Shown piece by piece: positions 4,235 through 48,871 of a stretch of 64,000 nt of DNA (position 1 is the stretch's first letter; the number at the start of each line of letters is the position of its first letter). The DNA is taken from positions 1-64,000 of the forward strand of contig JAOATL010000021.1 in NCBI GenBank assembly GCA_030158125.1. The letters are read 5' to 3'. The stretch comes from Limnohabitans sp. GTDB taxonomy: Bacteria > Pseudomonadota > Gammaproteobacteria > Burkholderiales > Burkholderiaceae_C. The notes beneath the pieces were generated by a model, which saw only the letters and a list, made by a program, of their open reading frames with translations, did no database searches and was not told the DNA's origin. The position numbers were made by a program, and so were the translations under genes.

Positions 4235-6523
4235 TTACAAGCCGATTTTGCCGCCATCATTTTTGGTAATGACCAACGTCGCTGAACGTGGGCGACCCAA
4301 TGGTCCATAAGCGGCACTCATGCCGCCACCATTGCCTGGCCATGTGCTTTCAACAGTCAAAGCAGCAGAAGTACCCCAAGCAGGCGTGTTTTCACCCGGA
4401 TGCTGAATGTTCACAAACAGGGTTTTGCCATCGGCTGTTTCAGTCAATCCCGTCACTTCTGCGCCTTTGGGGGCTACCAAGAATCGACGCAAACGCGACT
4501 CACCCAGCACGCCACCAATGAATGTTTTGGTCACGCCTTTGGAGGTCGAAGTACCAGCGGTCAGTTCGTTGTCTACATAGAACTCTCCGCCGTCGCCGAC
4601 AGAACCCGGCACAGAAGCCAACAGCATGCAGTTGGTTTCGTCTGTGAAGGCACCATCGTCGGTTTGAATCCAGCAGATGCCGGTGCTCTTGCTGAACCAC
4701 AAACCATCGGGCGAAGAGAAGCTGTTGTTGGCAGTCAATTTAGACAAGTTCACATTGGCGGGCATGTCTTCTTCAGCGCCAAACACATAAATGTCCCACT
4801 TGAAACCAAGCGCAGTGCTTGAATTGTCTTGCTCTTTGAATCGAATGATGTGGCCGTTGGGGTTACCAGAACCTTTTTTGCCATCGGCATCGTTGTAAGA
4901 ACGTGGGTTTGCACCATCGGCGGTAGCAGGTGTGCGGTTTGCGGCACTGTTGTTGGTCAGCGCAAAATAAATTTCACCATTCGCCGGGTTAACGGCGCCC
5001 CACTCTGGACGGTCCATCTTGGTTGCGCCAACAGCATCAGCGGCCAAACGTGTGTGAACATAAATCTCTGCTTGATTGGTGAACGTAAAACCAGCGGCAC
5101 CCGCATAAGAAGTGATCAAGGGATTGCTGATGTTCAGTTCAACCCACTCGCCTGCGCCTGTGCTGCTGAACTTGGCCACATACAGTTTGCCTTCGTTCAA
5201 GTATTTGTTGCCCGCAGCCATGCCACCACCAATGTCAGCTGCATCCCAGTTGGCGGCAGAGACAAACTTGTAGATGTATTCATTGCGGCTATCGCAACCC
5301 ATGTAAAACGCCAGTGGTTTGCCCACCACAGGAATTCCGCACACAGCCGCCTCATGCGCAAAACGACCCAGTGCAGTGCGCTTAGCGGGGCGTGCTGTTG
5401 GATTCAAAGGATCAACTTCCAAAATGTAGCCAAAGGTCTGTGGCTCTTGGCGGAAGTCTGCGGCTGCACTGGCGCCCACTGCCGCCACGTTCCAGCGGGA
5501 AAAGCGAAAGTCTGTGTCATCCATGTCTGTGGGGGTGTACCAACCTTGGCCAGAACCCGTGGTGGCGGTGCTAGACAGGGCCACACTGCTAACGCCGTAA
5601 CGCTTGCGTGACGCAATGATTTTGGCCTCAGGCAAGGCCGCGCCAGCTGGCATGTTCCAGTATGCGGCCCAGTTTTCTTCACAGCCCAAATAAGTGCCCC
5701 ATGGTGTCAAGCCGTGCCCGCAATTGTTCAAAGTGCCGCGGGCGGTAGCGCCGCTGGTGTCAAAACGTGTGACAAACATGCTTCGAATAGAACTCAGATG
5801 GGCGGCAGGCCCTTGAACATCCACCACGGTTTGCGGCGTGATGCGACGATTCAAAGCCGAATCCGTGATGTAGCCCGTAGGCTTGCCAGATGCATCCAAC
5901 GAAATTTCGGCAACAGAAATGCCGTGCAAATTGATTTCTTTCAGAACTTCCAAACCCGGGCGTGCTTTGGTATCCCAGTCGCCAAATTGTGAAAATTTCT
6001 TGCCATTCACGCCGCCAGAAGTCTGGCCTTTGGGATGCAAGAAATGAGAGTCAGCAGAACTCTCGTGATTCACCGCCAACACAGCACGGGCTGTGGCTTT
6101 GGTGCTGTAACGGCCATTGGCGTCGATGTAGAAAATGTCCATGCCATCGTGGTGATCGCCAATGCGCTCATTCCAGTCATCGGTTTCCAAACCTTGACCC
6201 GAGAACTGCGTCACATTGCTGGTCAAACGATCACCGGTGGCGTGCAACACTTTGACGCTATAGCCAGCAGGCACAAGCACTTGGTCCAAAATGCTTTTGG
6301 TAACGGCATTGAAACCCAGCAAGGATGAGCTGGGCAACTCACTGAGCGTTGGGGTTGTCAAACCACCACAGCCAGGCAGCATTGGCAATGCAAACATGGC
6401 GGCAAGGCCCATGCCACCTCGCAACATGTTGCGGCGAGAGGGATCTTTCAAGGCCTGCGTGAGTACGTCTTGGAAGTGAACGTTGGAAGAATTGTTGCAG
6501 TCGATATCGTCATTGATTGGCAT
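4235..6523 (-). CDS. phoX: PhoX family alkaline phosphatase (DUF839)
   Basis: Secreted phosphomonoesterase of the PhoX type, 762 residues. This family uses iron/calcium rather than zinc to release phosphate from organic esters. The N-terminus carries a twin-arginine signal, SRRNMLRGG at about 29-37, followed by a hydrophobic stretch ending in LPGCGG, so Tat export to the periplasm or outer surface is expected; Cys52 could be a lipoprotein site. The body shows the family's conserved pattern around NCGHGLTPWGTYLGCEENW and GRFAHEAAV. AGGAG lies 7 bases before the ATG. A Pho-box-like site with an aligned -10 precedes it, consistent with PhoB control. The gene sits directly downstream of phoR and is closed by a strong terminator. 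Confidence 0.93.
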   Translation of the reverse strand: MPINDDIDCNNSSNVHFQDVLTQALKDPSRRNMLRGGMGLAAMFALPMLPGCGGLTTPTLSELPSSSLLGFNAVTKSILDQVLVPAGYSVKVLHATGDRLTSNVTQFSGQGLETDDWNERIGDHHDGMDIFYIDANGRYSTKATARAVLAVNHESSADSHFLHPKGQTSGGVNGKKFSQFGDWDTKARPGLEVLKEINLHGISVAEISLDASGKPTGYITDSALNRRITPQTVVDVQGPAAHLSSIRSMFVTRFDTSGATARGTLNNCGHGLTPWGTYLGCEENWAAYWNMPAGAALPEAKIIASRKRYGVSSVALSSTATTGSGQGWYTPTDMDDTDFRFSRWNVAAVGASAAADFRQEPQTFGYILEVDPLNPTARPAKRTALGRFAHEAAVCGIPVVGKPLAFYMGCDSRNEYIYKFVSAANWDAADIGGGMAAGNKYLNEGKLYVAKFSSTGAGEWVELNISNPLITSYAGAAGFTFTNQAEIYVHTRLAADAVGATKMDRPEWGAVNPANGEIYFALTNNSAANRTPATADGANPRSYNDADGKKGSGNPNGHIIRFKEQDNSSTALGFKWDIYVFGAEEDMPANVNLSKLTANNSFSSPDGLWFSKSTGICWIQTDDGAFTDETNCMLLASVPGSVGDGGEFYVDNELTAGTSTSKGVTKTFIGGVLGESRLRRFLVAPKGAEVTGLTETADGKTLFVNIQHPGENTPAWGTSAALTVESTWPGNGGGMSAAYGPLGRPRSATLVITKNDGGKIGL

Positions 6524-6554
6524 GTCAAGCTCCTATAAAAAAATCTATAGGCGC

Positions 6555-6588
6555 ACTATGTCCAACTCAAGTTAAATATTTATGACGC
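6555..6588 (-). promoter_or_regulatory. Candidate Pho box and -10 for phoX
   Basis: Minus-strand GCGTCATAAATATTTAAC (6571-6588) matches the two CTGTCAT/C half-sites at 5/7 and 4/7. Exactly 10 bases downstream lies CATAGT (6555-6560), a 4/6 match to TATAAT, which is the spacing of PhoB-activated promoters. The half-sites alone are weak; the aligned -10 and the target gene make it credible. A short inverted repeat, CCTATA/TATAGG, follows and includes part of the Shine-Dalgarno sequence. Confidence 0.5.
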
Positions 6589-6599
6589 AAATAATAAAT

Positions 6600-7916
6600 T
6601 TACAAGACAACGCGCGAAGCAGGAAACACCAACACAAAACGCGAACCCTTGCCAAGTTCACTTTCAATTTTCAGTTCACCACCGTGTCGCTGCATCACAT
6701 GCTTGGCAATGGACAAGCCCAATCCAGTACCACCCGACTCACGTGATCGACTTCTGTCAACTCTGTAAAACCGTTCGGTCAGACGGGGGAGATGTTCTGA
6801 AGCAATGCCTGGGCCAGTGTCCACCACACTGAACTGAATTCTTTGATCCGGCAACACCGTCCACAGCGCTGTGATCAAGCCACCTGCTGGTGTATAACGA
6901 ACAGCGTTGTTCACAAGATTTGAAACGGCACTGTGCAACTCCTTTGCAACGCCCAAAATTTGAACGCCCTCAGGCGCTTCAAAATGCAACACTTGAGGCT
7001 CATCGGCCGACACATGTTGCGAGGCTGACAAGCCGCGTGCCTCTGATTCAATGGCCCCCATCAAATTGCTTAGCAAAACGGGATCGCTGCTTGATGGCAA
7101 GCTGCTTCCCTCTAGCTGCGACAAGATCAATAAATCATTCACCAGTTCCTGCATTCGCAATGCTTGCGTCGACATCAACCCCAAGTATTGCTCACGCTCT
7201 TGTTCATTCAAGGGCAAGTTCTGCAATGTTTCTATGAACCCGCTCATCACGGTCAATGGCGTTCTGATTTCATGCGAAACATTGGCCACGAAGTCGCGCC
7301 GCATGGCATCGGCATGCGCCACGGCTGTCACGTCACGCGTCAACAGCAGCTGCCTGTTTTCTCCATAATTGTGCAACTGAACAGATAACTTGACCGTGTG
7401 TTGCAGCGATGCGTTGCGACCATCGATGATCACCTCGCCTTCGTGAACATCTGTGCTGAGGTATTTTTTGAAGACAGGATCACGGACCAAGTGCACCACG
7501 TGTTGCATCAGGTCTCTTTTGGCATCCATGCCCAAGTGCAGCGCAGCGGTTTGATTGCACCATTCGATTCTGCCTTCAGGATCTAGCAGCACCACACCGT
7601 TGGGTGAAGCCTGGATGGCCAACAAAAAATCTTGCAATCTTTGCTGTTCAAGTTTGGTTTGTTTGCGCTGTTCATTGAGAATGCGTTTCATGCGGTCGAT
7701 GAGATCGCCCCAAATCCCCCCCATTTCCGGCGGCTCTTGCACATTGTTGTGGCGCAACCAATTGGCCAATTTTTGGCCCTTCCACAGATCTTTCAAGAGC
7801 GTGTAAACACACACAATCAAGGCGCCCGCCAACAGCCCCTGTGGCCCGTCAAGCCAGAAGCCGGTGGCCGAGGCAACGGCCATGCCAAAAACCAAACCGA
7901 GGGTTCTAGAAAACAT
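6600..7916 (-). CDS. phoR: Phosphate regulon sensor histidine kinase PhoR
   Basis: Membrane histidine kinase of 438 residues that phosphorylates PhoB when phosphate is scarce. An N-terminal hydrophobic region (about 1-40) is followed by a PAS-like segment (GVVLLDPEGRIEWCNQTA). The kinase core shows H-box FVANVSHEIRTPLTVMSGF, N-box NLVNNAVRYT, and G-boxes DTGPGI and GGTGLGLSIAKH. The start MFSRTLGL lies 20 bases after the phoB stop; an upstream extension would overlap phoB. It is last in the pstSCAB-phoU-phoB-phoR run. No terminator is visible between it and phoX, so some read-through into phoX is possible. Confidence 0.95.
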   Translation of the reverse strand: MFSRTLGLVFGMAVASATGFWLDGPQGLLAGALIVCVYTLLKDLWKGQKLANWLRHNNVQEPPEMGGIWGDLIDRMKRILNEQRKQTKLEQQRLQDFLLAIQASPNGVVLLDPEGRIEWCNQTAALHLGMDAKRDLMQHVVHLVRDPVFKKYLSTDVHEGEVIIDGRNASLQHTVKLSVQLHNYGENRQLLLTRDVTAVAHADAMRRDFVANVSHEIRTPLTVMSGFIETLQNLPLNEQEREQYLGLMSTQALRMQELVNDLLILSQLEGSSLPSSSDPVLLSNLMGAIESEARGLSASQHVSADEPQVLHFEAPEGVQILGVAKELHSAVSNLVNNAVRYTPAGGLITALWTVLPDQRIQFSVVDTGPGIASEHLPRLTERFYRVDRSRSRESGGTGLGLSIAKHVMQRHGGELKIESELGKGSRFVLVFPASRVVL

Positions 7917-7936
7917 ATCGATGGGTTGCTCGTAAC

Positions 7937-8647
7937 TTAAGCAGCAGACTGCGACGCTTGCCAATTGTCCGTGAAGCGATAACCTGCCCCGCGAACTGTT
8001 TCAACCATGCAGCCAGCTGCACCCAGTGCTTCGCGCAAGCGTTTGACGTGGACATCGACCGTGCGCTCTTCAATGAAAACGTGGTCACCCCATACCCGGT
8101 CAAGCAGCTGGCCACGGCTGTGCACTCGCTCTTTGTGCGTCATGAAATACTGCAGCAGCTTAAATTCAGTGGGGCCCAATTTGAGCGCTTGGGCCTGAAA
8201 GCTGACACGGTGTGTATCAGCATCCAATACCAAATCGCCCAATTGAATGCGCCCGGCTGATTGATCAGGCGCCCGTCTTCTGAGGACGGCACGAATTCTT
8301 GCCAGCAATTCTTTGGTAGAAAATGGTTTGACGATGTAATCGTCCGCACCGGCGTCCAAGCCCGCTACACGGTCGACTTCATCGCTTCTGGCCGTGAGCA
8401 TCAAAATTGGAACTGATTGCGAGCGTTTGTCTGAACGCCACTTTTTAGCCAAGGACAAACCACTTTCTTTGGGCAGCATCCAATCCAACAAAATGACGTC
8501 TGGTAGCACATCGTCCAGTTCTTTTTGCGCAGTTTCCCCATCCATCGCCCATATTGGTTGAAACCCATTGTGGCGCAAGTTCACTGCAATTAACTCGGCA
8601 ATTGCAGGTTCATCTTCCACAATGAGAATGCGTGGCAGGCTTCTCAT
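7937..8647 (-). CDS. phoB: Phosphate regulon response regulator PhoB
   Basis: OmpR/PhoB-type response regulator, 236 residues. The receiver domain (about 1-120) has the acidic pair in VEDE, the phospho-acceptor Asp in VILLDWMLP, the switch Thr in LMLTARSDE and Lys in IVKPF. The C-terminal winged helix (about 135-230) includes LGPTEFKLLQYFMTH and VDVHVKRLREALG. It activates promoters carrying Pho boxes, several of which are visible in this window. Its ATG overlaps the phoU stop codon (ATGA), indicating translational coupling. Confidence 0.96.
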   Translation of the reverse strand: MRSLPRILIVEDEPAIAELIAVNLRHNGFQPIWAMDGETAQKELDDVLPDVILLDWMLPKESGLSLAKKWRSDKRSQSVPILMLTARSDEVDRVAGLDAGADDYIVKPFSTKELLARIRAVLRRRAPDQSAGRIQLGDLVLDADTHRVSFQAQALKLGPTEFKLLQYFMTHKERVHSRGQLLDRVWGDHVFIEERTVDVHVKRLREALGAAGCMVETVRGAGYRFTDNWQASQSAA

Positions 8648-9342
8648 TTAACTGCAGACTCCACATCGGCCAAGGCAATGTGCCGAACATCGGCACCCTT
8701 GACAACATAGATGATGAATTCAGCAATGTTTTTGGCATGGTCGCCAATGCGCTCAATGGCTTTGGCCACAAACAACAAGTCCAAACTGGCAGAGATGGTG
8801 CGCGGATCTTCCATCATGTAAGTCACAAGCTTGCGCACAAAGCCATCGAATTCAGCGTCAATCAAATCGTCCTCTTTCAGGATCGAAACAGCTTCAGTGA
8901 CGTCTAAGCGGGCAAAGGCATCGAGCGCTTTGCGCAGCAAGCCAGACGCCAAATCGGAAGCAATGCGCAATTCCGAAGAAGGCAATGAGCGCGCGTTGCC
9001 CGTGGTAATGATGGATTTAACCATGCGTGCAATCTTCTCAGACTCGTCGCCCGCACGTTCCAGGTTGGCCGTGATTTTGGAGATGGCGATCAACAAGCGC
9101 AGATCGCGCGCTGTAGGCTGACGACGCGCAATGATTGAGGACAGATCGCGGTCAATCTCAACTTCCATTGAATTGACTTGCGCTTCGGTTGCAATCACTT
9201 GATCGGCAACTTCGCTGTTGAACTGTGACAATGAATAAACCGCATGGCGAATTTGCGATTCAACCAAACCGCCCAGCTCCAAAACACGCGTTGAAACACT
9301 GCCCAATTCGGCATCAAATTGACTTGAAATATGCTTGTCCAT
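8644..9342 (-). CDS. phoU: Phosphate signalling protein PhoU
   Basis: Cytoplasmic two-repeat helical metal-binding protein of 232 residues that links PstSCAB to PhoR and represses the Pho response when phosphate is plentiful. The two PhoU repeats are recognisable: the first around ITANLERAGDESEKIARM, the second around LDLLFVAKAIERIGDHAKNIAEF. It lies between pstB and phoB, with a 16-base gap to pstB and a 4-base overlap with phoB, the standard proteobacterial order. Confidence 0.96.
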   Translation of the reverse strand: MDKHISSQFDAELGSVSTRVLELGGLVESQIRHAVYSLSQFNSEVADQVIATEAQVNSMEVEIDRDLSSIIARRQPTARDLRLLIAISKITANLERAGDESEKIARMVKSIITTGNARSLPSSELRIASDLASGLLRKALDAFARLDVTEAVSILKEDDLIDAEFDGFVRKLVTYMMEDPRTISASLDLLFVAKAIERIGDHAKNIAEFIIYVVKGADVRHIALADVESAVK

Positions 9343-9358
9343 GATTTCTTTCTCCTGA

Positions 9359-10135
9359 TTAGCCGAATCGGCCAGTGATGTAGTCTTCGGTCTCTTGGCG
9401 AACAGGTTTCATGAAAATTTGATCGGTCTCGCCAAATTCCATCAATTCACCCAAGTACATATAGGCGGTGTAATCGGAAACACGTGCTGCTTGCTGCATG
9501 TTGTGCGTCACGATGACCACGGTGTATTCACTCTTCAAAGTATGAACCAGCTCTTCAACCTTGCCAGTTGAGATGGGGTCTAGCGCGGAGGTTGGCTCGT
9601 CCAGTAACAAAATGGATGGCTTCACCGCAATACCGCGTGCAATGCACAAACGCTGCTGCTGCCCGCCCGACAAAGACAAGCCACTTTGGTTCAATTTATT
9701 TTTGACTTCGCCCCAAATGGCCGCTTTTTGCAACGCCCACTCGACCCGATCGTCCATGTCACTGCGCGATAGGTTTTCGTACAAACGAACACCGAAGGCA
9801 ATGTTGTCGTAAATGGACATTGGAAATGGCGTTGGTTTTTGGAAGACCATGCCGATGCGTGAACGCAACAAGTTCAGATCTTGCTTGGGATTGAGAATGT
9901 TCTCTCCACCAAAATTAATCTCGCCCTCTGCACGTTGACCAGGATAAAGGTCATACATGCGGTTGAGGGTACGCAGCAAAGTCGACTTACCGCAACCAGA
10001 TGGTCCGATGAATGCTGTGACGGTATTTTTCTGGATGTCTAAATTGATATTTTTGAGACCTTGAAACGCACCGTAATAAAAGTTCAGGTTACGAACTTCA
10101 AGGATAGTTTCTTTGGTGGCAGGCAATGTATTCAT
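9359..10135 (-). CDS. pstB: Phosphate ABC transporter ATP-binding protein PstB
   Basis: ATPase of the high-affinity phosphate importer, 258 residues. Walker A is GPSGCGKST (about 43-51), the ABC signature is [14 protein letters not shown], and Walker B is [13 protein letters not shown]. The C-terminus ([18 protein letters not shown]) is typical of PstB. It is 21 bases downstream of pstA and upstream of phoU. Confidence 0.97.
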
Positions 10136-10156
10136 GTTGATGGAGGTGTTGAATGT

Positions 10157-11023
10157 TTAAGCTGCAACTTTTTCGCGGAAAACCACGCGCGCAATGATGT
10201 TGAGCGTCAAGACGGTGAGAGTGATCAACAATGCACCACCCCACGCCAAGCTGACCCAGTTTTCATAAGGGCTCATGGCAAATTGAAAGATGACCACTGG
10301 CAGGTTGGCCATGGGTTTGTTCATGTCGGCAGAGAAGAACTGGTTGTTAAGCGCAGTAAACAACAAAGGTGCAGTTTCGCCACTGACACGGGCCAGCGCC
10401 AATAAAAGGCCGGTCATCACACCGCTTTTGCCCCCCTTCAGTACAACAGACGTTGAAACCTTCCACTTTGGCGCACCCAATGCAAATGCAGCTTCGCGCA
10501 AACTCACGGGCACCAGTTTGAGCATGTTCTCTGTGGTGCGAACCACCACAGGGATTGCAATGAGAGAGAGTGCAATGGTGCCAGCCCAGCCAGAAAAATG
10601 CTTAGATGGCACAACCACCAGCGCGTACACAAAAAGGCCAATGACAATGGAGGGGGCCGACAACATGATGTCATTGACGAACCGGGTGATGGAGGCCATT
10701 TTGCTGCGATCGCCGTATTCCGACAAGTAAACTCCAGCCAGCACACCAATGGGCGTGCTGAGCAACGCGCATGACACCACAATCATCAAGCTGCCCACAA
10801 TGGCGTTCGCCAATCCGCCGCCCTCAGAACCTGGTGCAGGCGTGCTTTGGGTCAACATGGCAAAACTCAATGCTGAGAAGCCTTTGACCATCAAAATAGC
10901 CAAAATCCAGAGCAAGAAAATCAAACCCACGGCCATGGCCGACATGGACAACACCAGGCCGATGAAATTCGCACGCTTGCGACGTGCGTAAATAGAGGGG
11001 TCTTTGTTCACAATGCCAATCAT
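10157..11023 (-). CDS. pstA: Phosphate ABC transporter permease PstA
   Basis: Inner-membrane permease of 288 residues with about six predicted hydrophobic segments. The cytoplasmic EAA-type loop is visible in [18 protein letters not shown], which contacts PstB. It pairs with PstC to form the phosphate channel. Its ATG overlaps the pstC stop by 4 bases, so the two permeases are translationally coupled. Confidence 0.95.
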
Positions 11024-12000
11024 GTTTTCATTCCTTTCTTGGCTTCAGCACGGATCAACATCCATTTGGCCAAAGACAACACCACCAACGTGATCAAGAA
11101 CAAGGCCAACCCCAGCGAAAACAAGGATGCGTAATGCAGCCCAGGCTCGGCTTCACCAAACTCGTTGGCCAACGTGGAGGCAATTGAGTTGCCTGGTGAG
11201 AACAAGGAGGGTGACAACTTGTGCGCATTACCAATGACAAATGTCACGGCCATGGTTTCACCCAAGGCGCGCCCCAAGCCAAGCATCACACCGCCTACAA
11301 CACCAGTTTTGGTGTACGGCAACACAATTTTGGTCACCACTTCCCAAGTGGTGCAACCGATGCCGTAGGCAGACTCTTTCAAAATGGGCGGGACAATTTC
11401 AAAGACATCTCGCATGACAGATGCGATGAAGGGCAAGATCATCATGGCCAAGATCAAACCTGCAGCCAAAATACCGATGCCATTGAAGGCACCAGTGAAT
11501 AAAATGCCAATGCCGGGAATTTGTCCCAGTGTGCTTGCCAACGCCGGTTGTACATATTCGGCAAACAAGGGGGCAAACACAAACAAACCAAACATGCCGT
11601 AAATGATGGACGGCACGGCCGCCAGCAGCTCAATGGCTGTGCCCAAGGGCCGGCGCAATGGCATTGGGCATGTCTCAGTCAAAAATACAGCAATGCCAAA
11701 ACTCAGTGGCAATGCAATCAAAATGGCGATGGTGGCCGTTGCGACTGTGCCAAAAATGGCAATCAAACCACCAAATTTTGAGTTGATGATGTCCCACTCA
11801 ACTGTGTAGAAAAATTCAAAACCAAATGTGGTGAGCACTGGCCATGAACTGATGAACAACGAGACAATGATGCCGGTCAGTGCCAACAGCGTTGACAGCG
11901 CAAAGGCCATTGTGGTTTTTTCAAACAAATAGTCTTGCCACCGCTGCCAGCGCAAAACGCTTTGGCGGTGTGGCGTCATCAAGTTGTCTACGTCGTTCAT
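11020..12000 (-). CDS. pstC: Phosphate ABC transporter permease PstC
   Basis: Inner-membrane permease, 326 residues. It starts [13 protein letters not shown] and has about six hydrophobic segments. The EAA-type loop is [19 protein letters not shown]. The start is put at 12000, 11 bases after the pstS stop; an upstream frame beginning at 12036 would run into pstS and is not family-like. It is the partner of PstA in the phosphate importer. Confidence 0.95.
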
Positions 12001-12011
12001 GGTGCTCTCAG

Positions 12012-13034
12012 TTACTTCACGTTGACTTTGTTCCAAACGCTCTTGCGAATGAAGTCAGTTGTTGCATCAGGCATGGGCACATACTCCAAGTCTGTGGCCA
12101 TTTTTTTGCCGTCTTTGAAGGCAAAGTCAAAAAACTTCATCACTTCGGCAGCGTTGGCTTTGTTGGTAGGCTCTTTGAACATCAAGATGAAAGAGGCACC
12201 TGTAATTGGCCAAGACTTGGCACCTGGTGCGTTGGTCAAGTAGATGCTCATGCCTGGAATTTTTGACCAATCTGTGCTGGCAGAAGCTGCAGCAAAGGTT
12301 TCGTCATCAGGCGCCACAAATTGACCGGCTTGATTGCGAAGGTTCATGTGTGACATGTTGTTTTTCTTGGCATAGGCGTACTCAACATAGCCTACAGAAT
12401 TTTTGATGCGTGAGACGTTGGCGGCGACGCCTTCATTGCCCTTGCCACCCACTGACGAAGCAGCAGGCCATTTGACGGCAGCACCGGCACCCACTGTCGA
12501 TTTCCAGTTGGCATTGACCTTGGCCAAATAATCTGTAAACACGGCCGTGGTACCTGATCCGTCTGCACGGTGCACCACCGTGATGGCGGCATCAGGCAAG
12601 CTCACACCTGGATTCAGATCGGCAATGCGTTTGTCGTTCCACTTTGGAATCACGCCGGCAAACACGTCGGCCAACAACTCGCCTGACAACTTCAACTGGC
12701 CTGGCTTGATGCCTTCAATGTTCACCACGGGCACCACGCCACCAATGATGGCAGGAAATTGAACCAAACCTTCTTTGTCCAAATCGGCAGCCGACATGGG
12801 GGCGTCGGTCGCGCCGAAGTCAACGGTCTTGGCTTTGATTTGCTTGATGCCACCAGAAGAACCAATGGATTGATAGTTCATGCTGTGGCCTGTTTTAGCT
12901 TTGTAGGCCTCGGCCCATTTGGCATAAATAGGGAAAGGAAATGTGGCGCCGGCGCCCGTCAATTCAGCCGCCATGGAAGTAGCAGCAACGGCTGCTAGGC
13001 CCAATGCTGCTAACAAAGTTTTAATCTTTAACAT
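12012..13034 (-). CDS. pstS: Periplasmic phosphate-binding protein PstS
   Basis: High-affinity phosphate-binding protein, 340 residues. A Sec signal peptide ([23 protein letters not shown]) is cleaved near residue 22. The mature start [18 protein letters not shown] and the phosphate-contact motifs [16 protein letters not shown] and RADGSGTT are classic PstS features. The ribosome binding site AAGGA lies 6 bases before the ATG. It is the first gene of the pstSCAB-phoUBR operon and is preceded by the best-placed Pho box in the window. High expression under phosphate limitation is expected. Confidence 0.97.
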
Positions 13035-13123: not shown

Positions 13124-13157
13124 AATCTAACGACCAATTGTGACAAATTCATGTCAT
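13124..13157 (-). promoter_or_regulatory. Pho box and -10 of the pst operon
   Basis: Minus-strand ATGACATGAATTTGTCAC (13140-13157) matches the two PhoB half-sites at 5/7 and 6/7 with the normal 4-base spacer. TAGATT (13124-13129, 4/6 match to TATAAT) begins exactly 10 bases downstream. The box lies 105 bases upstream of the pstS ATG, giving a leader of about 80 bases. Confidence 0.7.
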
Positions 13158-15323: not shown

Positions 15324-17417
15324 TTACTTTGCCTTGCGAATGGCAGGCGAATATTTTTGCATCAACAAGGCTTGTGCACTTTGAGGTTTATGGCCTTGCT
15401 TTTCTACGCGGCGGTACTTGCCATCAGCACTCAAGGTCCATGCATTTCGTGTGTCGTGCAAATAAGCCAGCAAGCACTCATCGACAATTCTTTGTCGCAA
15501 AGGTAAATCCAACACGGGCCATGCCAGCTCGACGCGTCTCGTCATGTTTCGCGTCATCCAATCGGCACTGGACAAATAAATGTCTTGATCCGCACCTGCT
15601 TCAAAAAAGAAAACTCGCGAATGCTCTAAGAATCGACCGATGATGGACCGTACTCTGATGTTGTCTGTCTTGCCAGGAATGCCTGCCGGAAGCATGCATG
15701 CGCCCCTCACAATCAAATCAATTTGCGCGCCCTTTTGCCCCGCCACAATCAGCGCATGAATGAGCACAGGATCTGTCAAAGAATTCATCTTGGCGACAAT
15801 CCTTGCAGGCAGGCCCTTGGCAGCCGCTTCGCCCACAGCCTCAATTTTCTCAGTCAACTTATGTTGAAGCTGAAACGGTGCCGTCCATAGTTTGCTCATA
15901 CGGCCCATGCGACTAGGACTGGCCAAATGCACAAACAAAGTTTCCATATCTGCCGTCATGCGCGGATCGCAAGTTAGGTAACTTAAATCTGTGTATAACT
16001 TGGCAGTTCTGGGGTTGTAGTTGCCTGTCGACAAATGTCCATATCGCTTTAACAATCGACCTTCACGCCGTGTCACCAACAGCATTTTGGCGTGTGTTTT
16101 TAAACCCACCACGCCATAGACAACTTGAGCGCCAATTGATTCGAGTTGCTCAGCCCAGTTGATATTGGCTTCTTCATCAAACCTCGCCTTCAGTTCAACC
16201 ACAGCAGTGACTTCTTTTCCTCGACGAACAGCCTCTCGCAAAAGATTGATCATGGCAGGATCGCTGCCCGTTCTATAAATGGTTTGTTTGATGGCCAATA
16301 CGTTGGGGTCCTCAACTGCCTCTTTTAGGAAGGCCAAGACACCATCGAAGCTCTCGAAGGGCTGATGGACAAGCACGTCGCCTTGTTGAATTCGCGCAAA
16401 GATAGAACTGCTTTGATTCAGTTGTTTGGGAAAACTAGATTGGTATGGCGGGAAAACCAATTGAGGATCGTCAACCCAATCGATCAGTTGACTTAAGCGC
16501 ACCAAGTTCACAGGGCCTGCGGCTCTAAACAAAGCTGTGTCAGGCAAACTGAATTGATTGAGTAGAAAACCAGAAAGATGTTCAGTACAACTGTCTGAGA
16601 CTTCCAAGCGCAAGGCTTGTCCAAATTGTCGGTGCTGCAACCCTTTTCGAAGTGCCGTCCGTAAGTTTTCAACTTCTTCTTCGTCGACCGAAAGATCAGA
16701 ATTCCGAGTGACACGAAACTGCGAAAATTGGCCCACAACCCGACCCGGAAACAAATCATTCAGATGCGCACGAATGACACTGGACAAAAGAACAAAAGCT
16801 TTGCCTTTGCCAGCGATCTTGTCAGGCAAAGGAATGACCCGCGGCAAAACGCGCGGAACCTTCACAATGGCGATGTCATTAGAACGGCCAAACGCGTCTT
16901 TCCCAGAAAGCTGAACAATGAAATTGAGGGATTTGTTTGCGACTTGTGGGAAAGGATGCGCAGGATCCAAACCCACAGGAACCAAAAGAGGCTTGACCTC
17001 TCGTCTGAAATAAGCTTGAACCCATTTTTTTTGAGCAGCATTTCGACTACCGTGGGAAAGTATGCGGATGCCCTCCTTTTCCAAGCTGGGCAACAACACA
17101 TCGTTGTAAAGCTTGTATTGCTCATTGACCAAATTTCTTGCATCCTGATAGACCGCCTTGAAAGTGTCAACGTTGTATGCCCCTTTGAATTCCTGAAGGC
17201 GATACGCGGCCATGTGCAAATCTGCACGTACTTCAAAAAACTCATCCAAATTAGAAGACACGATGCAAAGATAACGCAGTCTCTCCAGGAGAGGAACTTC
17301 CGGTCTTCTAGCCCAATCCAAGACGCGCTCATTGAACGCCAAAATGCTGCCATCTCTGTCTAGCAATTCAATTCCAGAATGGAGGGGCGTTGGGGTGGGT
17401 GGATTTTGTGTCAACAC
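15324..17417 (-). CDS. ppk: Polyphosphate kinase 1
   Basis: Reversible ATP:polyphosphate phosphotransferase, 697 residues, the usual PPK1 length. The N-terminal domain begins LLDRDGSILAFNERVLDWA. The catalytic region includes YGHLSTGNYNPRTAKLYTD, containing the family's autophosphorylated histidine motif. A C-terminal PLD-like domain carries RGACMLPAGIPG. The frame opens at a GTG (17417). It forms a likely operon with the sixA-like gene and converges on ppx. A well-placed Pho box lies 78 bases upstream, so polyphosphate accumulation is probably PhoB-controlled. Confidence 0.96.
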   Translation of the reverse strand: MLTQNPPTPTPLHSGIELLDRDGSILAFNERVLDWARRPEVPLLERLRYLCIVSSNLDEFFEVRADLHMAAYRLQEFKGAYNVDTFKAVYQDARNLVNEQYKLYNDVLLPSLEKEGIRILSHGSRNAAQKKWVQAYFRREVKPLLVPVGLDPAHPFPQVANKSLNFIVQLSGKDAFGRSNDIAIVKVPRVLPRVIPLPDKIAGKGKAFVLLSSVIRAHLNDLFPGRVVGQFSQFRVTRNSDLSVDEEEVENLRTALRKGLQHRQFGQALRLEVSDSCTEHLSGFLLNQFSLPDTALFRAAGPVNLVRLSQLIDWVDDPQLVFPPYQSSFPKQLNQSSSIFARIQQGDVLVHQPFESFDGVLAFLKEAVEDPNVLAIKQTIYRTGSDPAMINLLREAVRRGKEVTAVVELKARFDEEANINWAEQLESIGAQVVYGVVGLKTHAKMLLVTRREGRLLKRYGHLSTGNYNPRTAKLYTDLSYLTCDPRMTADMETLFVHLASPSRMGRMSKLWTAPFQLQHKLTEKIEAVGEAAAKGLPARIVAKMNSLTDPVLIHALIVAGQKGAQIDLIVRGACMLPAGIPGKTDNIRVRSIIGRFLEHSRVFFFEAGADQDIYLSSADWMTRNMTRRVELAWPVLDLPLRQRIVDECLLAYLHDTRNAWTLSADGKYRRVEKQGHKPQSAQALLMQKYSPAIRKAK

Positions 17418-17479: not shown

Positions 17480-17513
17480 ATTTTTGCCAGCTATCGTGAC
17501 GAATTGATGACAA
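17480..17513 (-). promoter_or_regulatory. Pho box and -10 for ppk
   Basis: Minus-strand TTGTCATCAATTCGTCAC (17496-17513) matches the PhoB half-sites at 6/7 and 5/7 with a 4-base spacer. AAAAAT (17480-17485, 4/6 match to TATAAT) starts exactly 10 bases downstream. With the pst site it is the strongest in the window. Confidence 0.65.
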
Positions 17514-17563: not shown

Positions 17564-18604
17564 TCACTGCGCGAGCTGTTTGGCGGGCACCAAGTTGCGC
17601 ACAAACAAGGAGGTGGCTTTTTTCCAGCTGAAATCTTGGGCTCTGTTTCGTGCCAAATCGCGTGGTACTTTTAAGGCAGCTTGTGTTGCGATGGACAAGT
17701 CATCCCCAAGTACACCGCCCTGAACCTCACCCGTCGAATGGTCCATCAGAACCTCTTGCGGGCCGTCGACTGGATATGCCGCGACAGGGGTACCACAGGC
17801 CATTGCCTCCAACATGACCAAGCCAAATGTTTCGTGTCGGCTAGGGAAAACGAATACATCGGCTGTACGGTAGACCTTGGCCAGCTCTGTTCTGGCCAAT
17901 AAACCAAGCCAAGCGATGCCATCAAATCGCTGCTTCAAATCGGCCTCTAATGGACCAACGCCACACACCACTTTAGAGCCCTCAAAGTGCATGGCTAAAA
18001 ATGCCTCTATGTTCTTTTCATAGGAAACGCGACCCACAAAGACAGCCAGCGGCCGCTTCAAATGTGACAAAGGCAGGTATTCAGACGGAGACTGCGCAAA
18101 TTCAAACAACTCAACATCAACGCCATGGGTCCACGGCTTGAGGTTTTTGAAACCTTTTTCAGACAAGAGCGACAGAACCCCATGGGTTGGCACCATCACG
18201 CCAGCTGAATGGCGATGAAAATGTTTGAAAATTAAATAGCCCACCCAAAGTGGAATCTTCAGGGCAGCTTTCAAAATCTCTGGGAAGCGCGTGTGATAAG
18301 CGGTGGTGAAGTGCCACTTCTGCACAAGACAAATTCGACGCGCAGCCCATCCCAAGGGCCCTTCTGTGGCGACGTGAATGGCATCGAAATCCATTGAAGT
18401 CAACATGGCTTGGAGTTGTTTTTTGGGGGCCACAGCCAGATCAATGCCTGCATAACCTGGACAGGGCTTTGTTTTGAAAAGGCCTGGGTGAATTACTTCC
18501 ACAGCATGGCCCGCAAGCTGTAACTCTTTCACCAACTCAACCAGCGTGGTGACCACGCCATTAACTTGTGGTTGCCACGCGTCACTCACCAGAACAATTT
18601 TCAT
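17564..18604 (-). CDS. GT4 family glycosyltransferase, Agt-like (glycolipid synthesis)
   Basis: GT-B fold glycosyltransferase, 346 residues. The N-terminal acceptor domain starts MKIVLVSDAWQPQVNGVV. The C-terminal nucleotide-sugar domain shows FVGRVSYEKNIEAFL and the E-x7-E element in SRHETFGLVMLEAMACG. Its ATG overlaps the stop of the metallophosphoesterase gene (ATGA). In alphaproteobacteria and marine bacteria the same pair (plcP-agt) converts phospholipid-derived diacylglycerol to mono- or glucuronosyl-diacylglycerol under phosphate starvation. That role is inferred here from order and location beside the Pho locus. Annotation as an alpha-mannosyltransferase of unknown acceptor is the alternative. 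Confidence 0.82.
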   Translation of the reverse strand: MKIVLVSDAWQPQVNGVVTTLVELVKELQLAGHAVEVIHPGLFKTKPCPGYAGIDLAVAPKKQLQAMLTSMDFDAIHVATEGPLGWAARRICLVQKWHFTTAYHTRFPEILKAALKIPLWVGYLIFKHFHRHSAGVMVPTHGVLSLLSEKGFKNLKPWTHGVDVELFEFAQSPSEYLPLSHLKRPLAVFVGRVSYEKNIEAFLAMHFEGSKVVCGVGPLEADLKQRFDGIAWLGLLARTELAKVYRTADVFVFPSRHETFGLVMLEAMACGTPVAAYPVDGPQEVLMDHSTGEVQGGVLGDDLSIATQAALKVPRDLARNRAQDFSWKKATSLFVRNLVPAKQLAQ

Positions 18605-19434
18605 GCGTTTACCCATGCGCTTGCCTCTTTGTAAGCAGGCTTCTTGGCGGCGTATGGATCGAATGTCAGAATTTCTAAACGGCCATCGTGATGCTCTACC
18701 AAGGTACTTAAACTCTCGACCCAATCCCCGTCGTTGCAATACAAAATACCGTCGATATCCCGAATTTCTGCATGATGAATGTGCCCACACACCACACCTT
18801 GATAGCCCAATTTTTTTGCCTCTTGCGCAACTGCAACTTCAAAATCAGAAATGAAATTAACGGCTTTCTTCACCTTCAGTTTCAGATAGGCAGAAAGAGA
18901 CCAATAAGGCATACCCATTCGGCCGCGCATGTAATTCAAGTGTCTGTTGGCTTTCAATGCCAGCTCGTAAAGAGAATCGCCCACATAGGCCAGCCATTTT
19001 GAAAACTGAATCACCCCATCAAAATAATCGCCATGAATGACCCACAACTTGCGGCCATCGGCGGTGGTGTGAACGGCTTGCTCGAGCACTTCAACACCAC
19101 CAAAGGAGTGATCTAGAAACTCACGTGCAAATTCATCGTGATTGCCTGGAACGTAGACCACGCGGCAACCTTTTCTTGCTTTTCTCAACAATTTCTGCAC
19201 CACGTCGTTGTGAGACTGAGGCCAATACCACTTTCGGCGCAATTGCCACCCATCGATGATGTCCCCTACCAAATACAAGGTGTCAGACGTATGGGTTTTT
19301 AGAAATTCCAGCAAAGCTTCTGCTTGACACCCTGGGGTTCCAAGATGCAAATCAGATATGAAGATGGCACGGTAGTGCTTCTTAGCTTGGCCTTCACCCG
19401 GCATGAATTCTTGAACATCTTTGAACATCGTCAC
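18601..19434 (-). CDS. plcP: PlcP-like metallophosphoesterase (LpxH superfamily)
   Basis: Calcineurin-like phosphoesterase, 277 residues. The full metal-binding set is visible: FISDLHLG, LVGDIIDGW, YVPGNHDEF, VIHGDYFDG and CGHIHHAEI. The segment around GDIIDGWQLRRKWYWPQSH followed by NDVVQKLLRKARKG is characteristic of PlcP proteins, phospholipase-C-type enzymes that strip phospholipid head groups during phosphate starvation; automatic pipelines usually call them UDP-2,3-diacylglucosamine diphosphatase. It sits between an OlsB-like gene and an Agt-like glycosyltransferase with GTGA and ATGA overlaps. The start is GTG at 19434, or ATG at 19428. A true LpxH function is less likely given the neighbours. 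Confidence 0.78.
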   Translation of the reverse strand: MTMFKDVQEFMPGEGQAKKHYRAIFISDLHLGTPGCQAEALLEFLKTHTSDTLYLVGDIIDGWQLRRKWYWPQSHNDVVQKLLRKARKGCRVVYVPGNHDEFAREFLDHSFGGVEVLEQAVHTTADGRKLWVIHGDYFDGVIQFSKWLAYVGDSLYELALKANRHLNYMRGRMGMPYWSLSAYLKLKVKKAVNFISDFEVAVAQEAKKLGYQGVVCGHIHHAEIRDIDGILYCNDGDWVESLSTLVEHHDGRLEILTFDPYAAKKPAYKEASAWVNA

Positions 19435-20270
19435 ACCCCTGCAAAATGCTTGCGATAGCGGAGGGGCAAATCCTTGACTTGCATCAGCATGGGCAAATCC
19501 GCCGTATTGAAGTCAGGATCCCATGCTGGCGCACCCAAAATCTTTGCACCTAAGCGTAAATAGCCTTTAATCAGAGCTGGCGGCTCAACCGGCAAATTGC
19601 CATCCAATTCGTCGATTGGCAAGGGCAATCGAGGTCTGACATGAAATTCAACAGAGGCCAGATGAGACTTGGCCAATTGGCGCCACATGCTTGCAGCAGC
19701 ATCGCCACTGACCATGCCGTTGTGCAGCATGGGGATGCTGGCGCACCCAATCATGGTGTCCAACTGGTTGCGAGACATGAATTCAAACAAAGCCCCCCAC
19801 AGCGCCAAGATCACACCGCCGTGGCGATGCTCCGCATGTACACAACTTCTGCCAAGCTCGACCATTCGTTCGCGCATGAAGCGCAAACGCGTTAAGTCAA
19901 ACTCTGTGTCGGTGTAAGTTCCCCCGGCGCGCTTTGCCTGTGCGGGCGTCAAGACGCGGTAGGTGCCAATGACTTTTTGCGTATGACCTTCTCGCACCAA
20001 CAGGTGCTCACAGTAGTCGTCAAACAGGTCAATGTCATGACCTTCCATGGTGCGCGCTAAGCGTGCCCCCATCTCATTGGCGAAGACTTCATAACGAAGC
20101 TTTTGCGCCTCTCTTACTTCGTCTTGATGCTTGGCCCAGCTAACTTCAATGGCTGATTTTTCAATTTGAGTGCAGTTGACACCCATTTGATGGCGAGGGC
20201 TTTGATGAAGTGACCCCCGTGGAAATTCAATTTGCGAAATTGGAAATGTCGGGTTTGGCAATTCTTTCAT
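19431..20270 (-). CDS. OlsB-like GNAT N-acyltransferase
   Basis: A 279-residue protein of the OlsB/hemolysin-like GNAT family. It shows EAQKLRYEVFANEMGARL (about 54-71), DDYCEHLLV, VIGTYRVL and ELGRSCVHAEHRHGGVI, motifs of the enzymes that transfer a 3-hydroxyacyl group to ornithine in ornithine-lipid synthesis. GGGAGA lies before the ATG. It is first in the olsB-like/plcP-like/agt-like operon; no OlsA-type O-acyltransferase gene is adjacent, so a complete ornithine lipid would need one elsewhere. A Pho-box-like site lies 74 bases upstream. An autoinducer-type or other amino-acid acylation is the alternative. Confidence 0.78.
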   Translation of the reverse strand: MKELPNPTFPISQIEFPRGSLHQSPRHQMGVNCTQIEKSAIEVSWAKHQDEVREAQKLRYEVFANEMGARLARTMEGHDIDLFDDYCEHLLVREGHTQKVIGTYRVLTPAQAKRAGGTYTDTEFDLTRLRFMRERMVELGRSCVHAEHRHGGVILALWGALFEFMSRNQLDTMIGCASIPMLHNGMVSGDAAASMWRQLAKSHLASVEFHVRPRLPLPIDELDGNLPVEPPALIKGYLRLGAKILGAPAWDPDFNTADLPMLMQVKDLPLRYRKHFAGV

Positions 20271-20343: not shown

Positions 20344-20361
20344 ATGAATTTTTTGTGACAC
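20344..20361 (-). promoter_or_regulatory. Candidate Pho box of the lipid-remodelling operon
   Basis: Minus-strand GTGTCACAAAAAATTCAT matches the two PhoB half-sites at 6/7 and 4/7 with a 4-base spacer. The hexamer 10 bases downstream (TGAACT) is only a 3/6 match to TATAAT, so the site is weaker than those of pstS and ppk. A 10-bp palindrome, GACACGTGTC (20357-20366), overlaps its upstream half and could be an alternative operator. Confidence 0.38.
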
Positions 20362-20430: not shown

Positions 20431-21009
20431 ATGACTTCTGACAAATCAAAACCATTTCCCGCCAAAACTTCTACACGTCGTATTCAAGTTCGTACGTCGG
20501 GTGTTCATGGCAAAGGCGTATTCGCCCTGCAAGACATTGCCAAGGGCGACGTCATCATTGAATACAAGGGTGAAATAATTTCTGCACAAGAAGCCGAAGA
20601 TCGACACCCCCACAATCCATCTGATCCCCATCACACGTTTTATTTTCAAATCGATGATGACCGCGTCATTGATGCATTGCATGGCGGCAACTCTGCGCGT
20701 TGGATCAATCACAGCTGCGTGCCCAACTGCAAACCCTCCGTTGAAGAAGATCGTGTGTTGATCAAAGCCAAAAAAGACATTTCAGCTGGCGAAGAGCTCA
20801 ACTATGACTATGGTCTCATCATTGATGAGCCCATCACGTCAAAACTGATGGCGCAATATCCTTGTTGGTGTGGCAGCCCAAAATGTCGAAAAACGCTGCT
20901 GGCAGTCAAGCCACTGTCGCAGAAAAAACGCAACAAAGACAAGGCCAAAAAGATTCGTCACACCATCAGCAAACTTAAAGACAAGCTAAAGCGACTTGAG
21001 AAAGCATAA
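20431..21009 (+). CDS. SET domain protein lysine methyltransferase
   Basis: A 192-residue protein with a complete SET domain: GVHGKGVFALQDIAKGD (about 24-40), the pseudoknot motif RWINHSCVPNC, ELNYDYG, and a Cys-rich post-SET element CWCGSPKC. These bind S-adenosylmethionine and the target lysine. The last ~35 residues are lysine-rich and helical (KKRNKDKAKKIRHTISKLKD), suggesting nucleic-acid or protein binding. SET proteins occur sporadically in bacteria and some modify DNA-associated proteins. It is divergent from the lipid operon; its target is unknown. Confidence 0.87.
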   Translation: MTSDKSKPFPAKTSTRRIQVRTSGVHGKGVFALQDIAKGDVIIEYKGEIISAQEAEDRHPHNPSDPHHTFYFQIDDDRVIDALHGGNSARWINHSCVPNCKPSVEEDRVLIKAKKDISAGEELNYDYGLIIDEPITSKLMAQYPCWCGSPKCRKTLLAVKPLSQKKRNKDKAKKIRHTISKLKDKLKRLEKA

Positions 21010-47959: not shown

Positions 47960-48871
47960 TCACTTCTTCTCGGAGACAGGCGCTTGGGCTACTTGCGTAG
48001 CGGCTGCGGCGTCGCCTTTGGCTGTGGCAGGCGCTGCCTCAGCTTTTTTCTTTTGTACCCAAGCTGCGTAATCAGCTGCGGATAAAACCTGAACATTGAT
48101 GGGCATGTAAGCATGCTCTTTGCCACACAACTCTTGGCATTGACCGTAGAACATACCTGTACGCTCAGCCAAGAAATGGGTGTCGCGCACAAAGCCTGGA
48201 ATGGCGTCTTGCTTGATGCCAAATGAAGGCACTGCAAATGAGTGAATCACGTCTGATGCAGTTGTAATGATGCGAATTTTTTTGCCAACAGGCACAACCA
48301 GCGGGTTGTCAACTTTCAGCAAGTAGTCGTCGGGCATAGCGCCTTTGGCGCCCGAATTGGACAAGATGCGGTGCTCATTGTCCAAAGAGGAAATGAAGGA
48401 GATGCCTTCACCCTCACCTTTGATGTAGTCGTATCCCCAGCGCCACTGGTGGCCCGTGGCCTTGATGGTGAGGTCGGCATTGGACGTGTCTTTTTGGGCA
48501 ATCACTGTTTTAGTGGCTGGAATGGCCATGAAAATGACAATGATGAAAGGCGCCAAAGTCCAAGCAATTTCTACTTTGACAGACTCATGAAAGTGAGCAG
48601 GCTTGTGACCCAATGACTTGCGATGCTTCAAAATTGAGTAAAACATCACACCAAAAACAGCCACAAAGATGACCAAGCAAATGACCATCATGAAGACATG
48701 CAAATCGGCTTGATCGGCGGCCAATTTGGTGGCGGGCACGTGCAAGTTCAACTGATTAACGGCTGGACCTCCGGGTAAGTCATTGACGGCGTAGGCAGAC
48801 GATGTCAAACCAGCCAAAGCAAGCGCGCTGCTGTTGGCAATTTTTTTCCAATGTTGGCTCAATTTATTCAC
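47960..48871 (-). CDS. coxB: Cytochrome c oxidase subunit II
   Basis: A 303-residue membrane-anchored subunit that receives electrons from cytochrome c. A signal sequence (LSQHWKKIANSSALALAGL) ends near SSAYA, then two helices follow (about 60-80 and 100-120). The CuA site is VIHSFAVPSFG plus GQCQELCGKEHAYM. The GTG start at 48871 is preceded by AAGGA; the longer frame from 48964 would overlap the cytochrome c4 gene. An Ala-rich C-terminal tail is present. Confidence 0.95.
   Translation of the reverse strand: MNKLSQHWKKIANSSALALAGLTSSAYAVNDLPGGPAVNQLNLHVPATKLAADQADLHVFMMVICLVIFVAVFGVMFYSILKHRKSLGHKPAHFHESVKVEIAWTLAPFIIVIFMAIPATKTVIAQKDTSNADLTIKATGHQWRWGYDYIKGEGEGISFISSLDNEHRILSNSGAKGAMPDDYLLKVDNPLVVPVGKKIRIITTASDVIHSFAVPSFGIKQDAIPGFVRDTHFLAERTGMFYGQCQELCGKEHAYMPINVQVLSAADYAAWVQKKKAEAAPATAKGDAAAATQVAQAPVSEKK

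What the first reader, a model, noticed from the sequence alone, without database searches (positions are those of the whole stretch)
17564..20270. OlsB-like, PlcP-like and Agt-like genes form a probable phosphate-starvation lipid-remodelling operon
Seen: three genes overlapping by 4 bases at each junction (GTGA, ATGA) encode a GNAT acyltransferase, a metallophosphoesterase with the PlcP pattern, and a GT4 glycosyltransferase, immediately after the pst-ppx-ppk island, with a Pho-box-like site upstream. Known: plcP-agt pairs replace phospholipids with glycolipids in alphaproteobacteria and marine heterotrophs under phosphate stress, and OlsB makes the lyso-ornithine lipid. Inference: one PhoB-linked operon in a betaproteobacterium serves both glycolipid and aminolipid surrogates. 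The combination of all three in one transcript next to pst-ppk is unusual and would normally be hidden under the labels LpxH and mannosyltransferase.
Basis: partly seen in the sequence, partly recalled or inferred. Interest (0 to 1): 0.8.

Follow-up and report, generated by a model that had tools for sequence, protein, structure and literature searches.

The report
Phosphate-saving membrane lipid operon
Three overlapping genes in a betaproteobacterium look like a switch that replaces phosphorus-containing membrane lipids with sugar and amino-acid lipids when phosphate runs out; the enzymes are of known kinds, and the three-gene arrangement recurs in many relatives.

Summary
Three minus-strand genes overlap by 4 bp (GTGA, ATGA): an OlsB-type GNAT, a PlcP-type metallophosphoesterase and a GT4 glycosyltransferase, next to ppk, ppx, pstSCAB, phoU, phoBR and phoX. 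The one refuting condition that could be computed fails on both counts: the genome has a separate LpxH (231 bits, cut-off 134; window protein 45), and the phosphoesterase groups with a Sinorhizobium meliloti PlcP-type protein (53% identity), apart from 14 model-defined LpxH (100/100). A Pho-box matrix trained on pstS and ppk promoters finds a site upstream of the GNAT in 20 of 31 sequences (window and 30 relatives), against 3% in shuffles; the window's own is moderate (13.6 bits, p 0.04). An OlsA candidate lies elsewhere, overlapping pyrC. GalU is present and no UDP-glucose dehydrogenase was found, so the glycolipid is more likely glucosyl- than glucuronosyl-diacylglycerol. The claim that the combination is unusual is not borne out: PlcP is in 149 and the GNAT in 166 of 200 family genomes, with both genes adjacent in 58 of 125 checked. 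This is a recurrent arrangement of the known PlcP-Agt and OlsBA pathways. Lipid products and phosphate induction were not tested.

The parts
19431..20270 (-). olsB-like GNAT N-acyltransferase, first gene of the operon
   Evidence: PF13444 119.6 bits; NCBIfam OlsB models 157 and 147 bits, below cut-offs 350 and 320; 30.8% to the S. meliloti OlsB-type protein, 46% to a Streptomyces protein beside an OlsA-type gene
18601..19434 (-). plcP-type metallophosphoesterase, overlaps the GNAT gene by 4 bp
   Evidence: 52.7% over 260 aa to the S. meliloti PlcP-type protein, 26% over 50 aa to the genome's own LpxH; tree 100/100 apart from LpxH; metallophosphoesterase motifs kept, GNHDE instead of GNRDF
17564..18604 (-). 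agt-type GT4 glycosyltransferase, overlaps plcP by 4 bp
   Evidence: PF00534 and PF13439 over cut-off; 39-50% to the GT directly after plcP in 29 regions outside the family, 31-32% in 2 more; EX7E motif read by eye from the translation
20344..20361 (-). probable Pho box of the operon, GTGTCACAAAAAATTCAT, 91 bp before the GNAT start
   Evidence: 13.6 bits, p 0.04 from 100 shuffles, with the trained matrix; 9.2 bits, p 0.07-0.10 with the untrained one; coordinates
17496..17513 (-). Pho box of the following ppk gene (probably a separate unit), TTGTCATCAATTCGTCAC
   Evidence: 16.4 bits with the untrained matrix, 0 of 300 shuffles as high; coordinates
13140..13157 (-). Pho box before pstS
   Evidence: 14.5 bits, shuffle p 0.013; coordinates
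15324..17417 (-). ppk polyphosphate kinase, often the next gene in relatives
   Evidence: Pfam PP_kinase domains; follows the GT or the MPP in 15 of 20 hand-picked family regions
4235..13034 (-). phoX-phoR-phoB-phoU-pstBACS
   Evidence: Pfam PhoX, PhoR, PhoU; NCBIfam PhoB, PstB, PstA, PstC, PstS each over a cut-off

Best explanation
This is a PhoB-activated membrane lipid-remodelling operon. At low phosphate PhoB binds the box at 20344-20361 and the three genes are made as one translationally coupled message. PlcP removes the phosphate head group of phospholipids and leaves diacylglycerol; the Agt-type enzyme adds a sugar, most likely glucose from UDP-glucose, to give a monoglycosyldiacylglycerol. 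In parallel the OlsB-type enzyme N-acylates ornithine with a 3-hydroxy-fatty acid, and an OlsA-type acyltransferase encoded elsewhere (G000:C10, overlapping pyrC, no Pho box found in its locus) adds the second chain to give ornithine lipid. OlsB would thus be the phosphate-gated step and OlsA constitutive. Shown here by computation: gene families, exclusion of LpxH, conservation, Pho-box enrichment. Inferred: substrates, products, single transcript, induction.
For: Separate LpxH, 231 against 44.8 bits. Tree of 38 PlcP-like and 14 LpxH proteins split 100/100, S. meliloti PlcP-type protein inside the first. Class-specific motifs GNHDE and CGHIH against GNRDF and HGHTH. GT directly after plcP in 31 of 39 distinct hand-picked regions outside the family. 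Pho boxes upstream of the GNAT in 20 of 31, all 20 pointing at the gene; shuffles 3.2%; upstream of MPP 3 of 37, of GT 0 of 27. PlcP and GNAT in 200 genomes: 142 both, 7 PlcP only, 24 GNAT only, 27 neither, Fisher p 2e-13, not corrected for kinship. GNAT relatives beside relatives of the OlsA candidate in 11 of the 20 plasmid records that hold both, in one genome of the same order and three Pseudomonas-type loci. 8 of the 9 genomes without an OlsA-type gene also lack the GNAT. GalU present, no UDP-glucose dehydrogenase over cut-off.
Against: The window's own Pho box is only moderate (p 0.04 trained, 0.07-0.10 untrained), and 11 of 31 sequences show none within 250 bp. The GNAT scores under half of the NCBIfam OlsB cut-offs, though none of the 16 genomes checked reaches the one tested. 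The OlsA candidate is nearly universal (191 of 200 at E<1e-30), also in 26 genomes without the GNAT, so it may mainly serve phospholipid synthesis. GNAT and PlcP are apart in 67 of 125 genomes and one occurs without the other in 31 of 200, so they are separable modules. The tree program warned of long LpxH branches and of odd letter make-up in three LpxH rows. No lipid or expression data.
Confidence: 0.8

Rival explanations
1. The phosphoesterase is a second LpxH of lipid A synthesis and the GT a lipopolysaccharide sugar transferase.
For: Both are calcineurin-like phosphoesterases; public records name most homologues LpxH; weak hits to LpxH structures, best E 0.0004.
Against: Each of 14 genomes, chosen as holders of the PlcP-like protein, has a separate LpxH over the cut-off and the PlcP-like protein below it; tree and motifs separate them; the neighbourhood is the phosphate regulon.
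Confidence: 0.03
2. PlcP and Agt act as described, but the GNAT acylates another amino acid (glycine, glutamine, lysine) or another acceptor, giving a different aminolipid.
For: Only about 31% identity to the S. meliloti OlsB-type protein; GNAT below OlsB cut-offs; PF13444 enzymes with other substrates exist (the GlsB glycine model matches at 19.7 bits).
Against: 46% identity to a Streptomyces protein beside an OlsA-type gene; S. coelicolor olsB-olsA make ornithine lipid by mutant and complementation (PMC4686642, passages); 49-55% to the one OlsB-model match in each of five large genomes of another family of the order; OlsB models score far above GlsB (157 against 20 bits).
Confidence: 0.12
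3. The operon is a real gene set but not phosphate controlled; adjacency to pst and ppk is inherited synteny.
For: The window's own Pho box is moderate; 11 of 31 sequences lack one within 250 bp.
Against: 20 of 31 have a correctly oriented box with a matrix trained without any upstream region of the GNAT; putative Pho boxes before olsB are reported for Burkholderia sensu lato (PMC7814305, section 16 read).
Confidence: 0.12

Closest known systems
PlcP-Agt glycolipid renovation (Pelagibacter HTCC7211, Agrobacterium, Pseudomonas aeruginosa PA3219-PA3218, Methylosinus OB3b)
   Same: plcP directly followed by a GT4 agt homologue, with Pho boxes; PlcP 47-65% identical in the rows listed outside the order, GT mostly 39-50%; literature PMC4796936 (passages, section 13), PMC8528852 and PMC9239053 (passages)
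   Different: An olsB-type gene precedes plcP in the same operon and ppk follows; no UDP-glucose dehydrogenase was found in this genome, so glucuronosyl-diacylglycerol is unlikely
OlsB-OlsA ornithine lipid pathway (S. meliloti, Burkholderia Bcal1281, Streptomyces coelicolor SCO0921-SCO0920)
   Same: GNAT N-acyltransferase of the same family, OlsA-type acyltransferase present, Pho-box control
   Different: olsB is split from olsA and joined to plcP-agt; the OlsA candidate overlaps the end of pyrC
LpxH, UDP-2,3-diacylglucosamine diphosphatase
   Same: Calcineurin-like phosphoesterase family and the name given in databases
   Different: Separate clade, other motifs, and a true LpxH elsewhere in the genome

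Membership tests
PlcP | Groups with a PlcP of a species with tested activity and apart from LpxH | tested here: met
   38 against 14 rows, 100/100, S. meliloti row inside. That row is from strain Ak57; that it is the orthologue of the tested SMc00171 is recalled (PMC2806695 not held). The LpxH rows are defined by the NCBIfam cut-off, not by experiment
PlcP | Metal-binding residues of the metallophosphoesterase site | tested here: met
   D28, H30, D58, N98, H134, H218, H220 invariant in 38 of 38 PlcP-like rows; that these are the ligands is recalled
PlcP | Phospholipase C activity on own phospholipids under low phosphate | not testable with these tools
   Needs enzyme assay or lipidomics
LpxH | NCBIfam equivalog score over cut-off | tested here: not met
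   46.1 of 134 bits and 37.8 of 190.35
Agt (plcP-linked GT4 diacylglycerol glycosyltransferase) | GT4 gene directly downstream of plcP and similar to such GTs elsewhere | tested here: met
   39-50% in 29 and 31-32% in 2 of 39 distinct outside regions, none adjacent in 8; 42-45% in Roseomonas, Sphingomonas and Methylobacterium records where most matches adjoin plcP
Agt (plcP-linked GT4 diacylglycerol glycosyltransferase) | Transfers glucose or glucuronate to diacylglycerol | not testable with these tools
   Only donor supply examined: GalU present, UDP-glucose dehydrogenase not found. No tree with tested Agt proteins was made
OlsB | NCBIfam OlsB equivalog score over cut-off | tested here: not met
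   157 of 350 and 147 of 320 bits; 0 of 16 genomes reach the first, including Pseudomonas-type GNATs that adjoin an OlsA-type gene, so the cut-off looks lineage-bound. I therefore call it OlsB-type, not OlsB
OlsB | Homologues paired with an OlsA-type acyltransferase | tested here: met
   11 of 20 plasmid records holding both; L210, L220-L222, L227, L230; not adjacent in this genome
Pho regulon | PhoB box upstream | tested here: met
   20 of 31 sequences; window site 13.6 bits at p 0.04, p 0.07-0.10 untrained: moderate for the window alone
Pho regulon | phoB-dependent induction at low phosphate | not testable with these tools
   Needs expression data

The most novel reading that the evidence does not exclude
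In this betaproteobacterial family the phospholipid-degrading, glycolipid-forming and aminolipid-forming steps are locked into one Pho-controlled operon ahead of ppk, so that uncharged glucolipid and zwitterionic ornithine lipid are made in a fixed ratio without glucuronolipid, while phosphate is stored as polyphosphate: one coordinated phosphate-sparing unit that I did not see described in the papers searched.
Probability: 0.35. Interest if true: 0.55.

Novelty: new variant of a known kind. Interest (0 to 1): 0.42.

Why it matters
Lipid renovation under phosphate stress is documented in the papers seen for marine, soil and clinical alpha- and gammaproteobacteria. Here the same machinery, joined to the ornithine-lipid branch, appears as a common trait of one betaproteobacterial family (PlcP in 149 of 200 genomes), largely hidden under the label LpxH. 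It predicts that such bacteria change membrane lipids in phosphate-poor habitats, which bears on estimates of cell phosphorus demand, and it gives a simple genetic test.

Tried and rejected
Rejected: LpxH identity. Rejected: rarity of the combination. Weakened: the OlsA candidate L008 as a dedicated partner, because it is nearly universal. A first Pho-box scan with weights of my own on the published consensus left the window site at p 0.07-0.10; the trained matrix gave 0.04. PDB searches gave only weak LpxH hits for the MPP and general GT4 hits for the GT. No structure was predicted. The genome-contig scan returned 80 loci (78 titled Pseudomonas, one Pseudomonadaceae, one Paucimonas) of 569 confirmed; P. 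aeruginosa, whose PlcP was tested, was not among the titles, so no tested Pseudomonas sequence entered the tree; three of the 80 did.

Papers: PMC4796936 passages and section 13; PMC8528852 passages; PMC7814305 passages and section 16; PMC9239053 passages; PMC4686642 passages; others only as search listings. No paper describing olsB with plcP and agt in one operon, or PlcP in this family, was seen in the listings (the last two returned none); subscription papers, among them one on the Burkholderia cenocepacia phosphorus response, are not held, so absence from print is not shown.

Rows dropped or left out: one search left out 13 short loci that duplicate longer regions, and upstream stretches under 100 bp (GNAT usable in 31 of 37 sources, the window among them). 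One search judged adjacency (best places starting within 2 kb on one contig, strand not checked) only for 125 of the 141 other genomes holding both, because the tables print the best rows only; the own genome was left out. The regions were hand-picked from the better hits. L096 repeats L076 and was counted once.
Full report
What is there. Three minus-strand genes, 20270 to 17564, overlap by GTGA and ATGA. They encode a PF13444 GNAT, a calcineurin-like phosphoesterase and a GT4 glycosyltransferase. Downstream come ppk and a histidine-phosphatase gene, then ppx on the other strand, then pstSCAB, phoU, phoB, phoR and phoX. The gene upstream is a divergent SET-domain protein. That the host is a betaproteobacterium is inferred: a Mitsuaria protein (Betaproteobacteria) falls among the family's own rows in the tree.

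The phosphoesterase is PlcP-type. The genome has one LpxH over the NCBIfam cut-off (231 bits, C19); the window protein scores 44.8. Fourteen genomes, chosen as holders of a PlcP-like protein, all show the same pair: one protein over the cut-off and one below it. A tree of 52 proteins puts 38 PlcP-like and 14 LpxH on two sides of a branch with 100/100 support; the S. meliloti protein lies with the window's. The program warned of long LpxH branches and odd letter make-up in three LpxH rows, and the LpxH rows are defined by model score, not by experiment. The S. meliloti locus lies near an AHL synthase and a LuxR-type gene on a 3.7 Mb replicon; that it is SMc00171, the tested PlcP, rests on recall. 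Identity is 52.7% over 260 aa to it and 26% over 50 aa to the own LpxH. Discriminating motifs: GNHDE against GNRDF, and CGHIH against HGHTH. The PlcP-like rows were chosen by similarity to the window protein, so the motifs describe that set.

The glycosyltransferase is of the plcP-partner kind. Of 39 distinct hand-picked regions outside the family, 31 have a GT4 match directly after plcP, 39-50% identical to the window's in 29 and 31-32% in two; eight have none adjacent. In Roseomonas, Sphingomonas and Methylobacterium records plcP and GT matches mostly adjoin. The literature ties such agt genes to MGDG and GADG (PMC4796936 section 13; PMC8528852). In NCBIfam two lipid glycosyltransferase models rank first and fourth but far below cut-off (69.5 of 480; 52.5 of 400). 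The own genome has GalU (369.7 bits) and no UDP-glucose dehydrogenase over cut-off (best 20.6 of 189.8 bits, while 13 of 14 control genomes pass). The product is therefore more likely glucosyl- than glucuronosyl-diacylglycerol; this is inference.

The GNAT is OlsB-type. It scores 157 and 147 bits on the two OlsB models, below both cut-offs. The Pseudomonas-type GNATs adjoin an OlsA-type gene. The window protein is 46% identical to a Streptomyces protein beside an OlsA-type gene; in S. coelicolor the like-arranged pair makes ornithine lipid (PMC4686642; that the two Streptomyces proteins are orthologues is inferred). The own genome has one other PF13444 hit, weak (26.6 bits).

OlsA. Of three PF01553 proteins, L008 is closest to OlsA (127 bits on one OlsA model, against 42 for L009 and no hit up to E 0.001 for L010) and to the S. 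meliloti OlsA-type protein (32%, E 3e-26). Its gene overlaps the end of pyrC (dihydroorotase, 709 bits), with no Pho box at or above 9 bits in the locus. Relatives of it sit beside relatives of the GNAT in 11 of the 20 plasmid records that hold both and in L210, L220-L222, L227 and L230. It is nearly universal: E<1e-30 in 191 of 200 family genomes, 26 of which lack the GNAT; but 8 of the 9 genomes without it also lack the GNAT (Fisher p 2.6e-6, not corrected for kinship). A double role in phospholipid synthesis would fit both facts.

How common. In 200 family genomes PlcP (E<1e-40) is in 149 and the GNAT (E<1e-30) in 166: 142 both, 7 PlcP only, 24 GNAT only, 27 neither. In 58 of the 125 genomes whose best places were printed for both, the two start within 2 kb on one contig. 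Of the 30 best plcP loci including the window, 29 have the GNAT and 24 the GT in the same stretch of at most 3.8 kb (one GT cut by a contig end). Of 20 hand-picked family regions 11 read GNAT-plcP-GT-ppk without a break, one more with a gap between plcP and the GT, three lack ppk next door, one lacks the GT, two have plcP-ppk only and two plcP alone. Outside the family 4 of 39 regions hold a GNAT near plcP, in one of them directly upstream (L073).

Pho control. A matrix was trained on 28 sites upstream of pstS and ppk, of 36 sequences tried; no GNAT upstream region was used. Upstream of the GNAT 20 of 31 sequences (window and 30 relatives) have a site at or above 9 bits, all 20 oriented towards the gene; first-order shuffles give 3.2%; controls upstream of MPP 3 of 37 and of GT 0 of 27. 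Eleven of 31 have none. The window's own site has 13.6 bits and p 0.04 (p 0.07-0.10 with the untrained matrix), and a similar one stands 85 bp before the gene in a genome of the same genus (L044). ppk has its own stronger box, so ppk is probably a second unit. Putative Pho boxes before olsB were reported earlier for Burkholderia sensu lato (PMC7814305).

Verdict. The single enzymes are known kinds; the three-gene arrangement before ppk is a recurrent variant in this family, for which I saw no description in the papers searched. Substrates, products and induction remain to be shown.

Noticed in passing
window 4235-6523: A PhoX-type alkaline phosphatase (PF05787, 380 bits) ends the phosphate island, beside phoR-phoB.
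   Followed up: partly
window 20431-21009: A SET-domain protein gene is divergent from the operon and shares its promoter region.
   Followed up: no
L223 (CP090106.1): A 3.7 Mb S. meliloti record titled pSymB carries AHL synthase, LuxR-type, plcP and olsB- and olsA-type genes; it looks like a mislabelled chromosome.
   Followed up: no
plasmid hits H4-H6 and H90-H92: Three plasmid records of Pseudomonas aeruginosa (96-167 kb) hold adjoining plcP and agt homologues; not examined further.
   Followed up: no
L224 (NZ_CP011515.1): A Mitsuaria plasmid carries plcP directly followed by ppk1 and a ppx-type gene, so part of the phosphate island lies on a plasmid there.
   Followed up: no
window 48576-48593: A fourth Pho-box-like site (11.7 bits, minus strand) outside the island; at the level of shuffles.
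   Followed up: no
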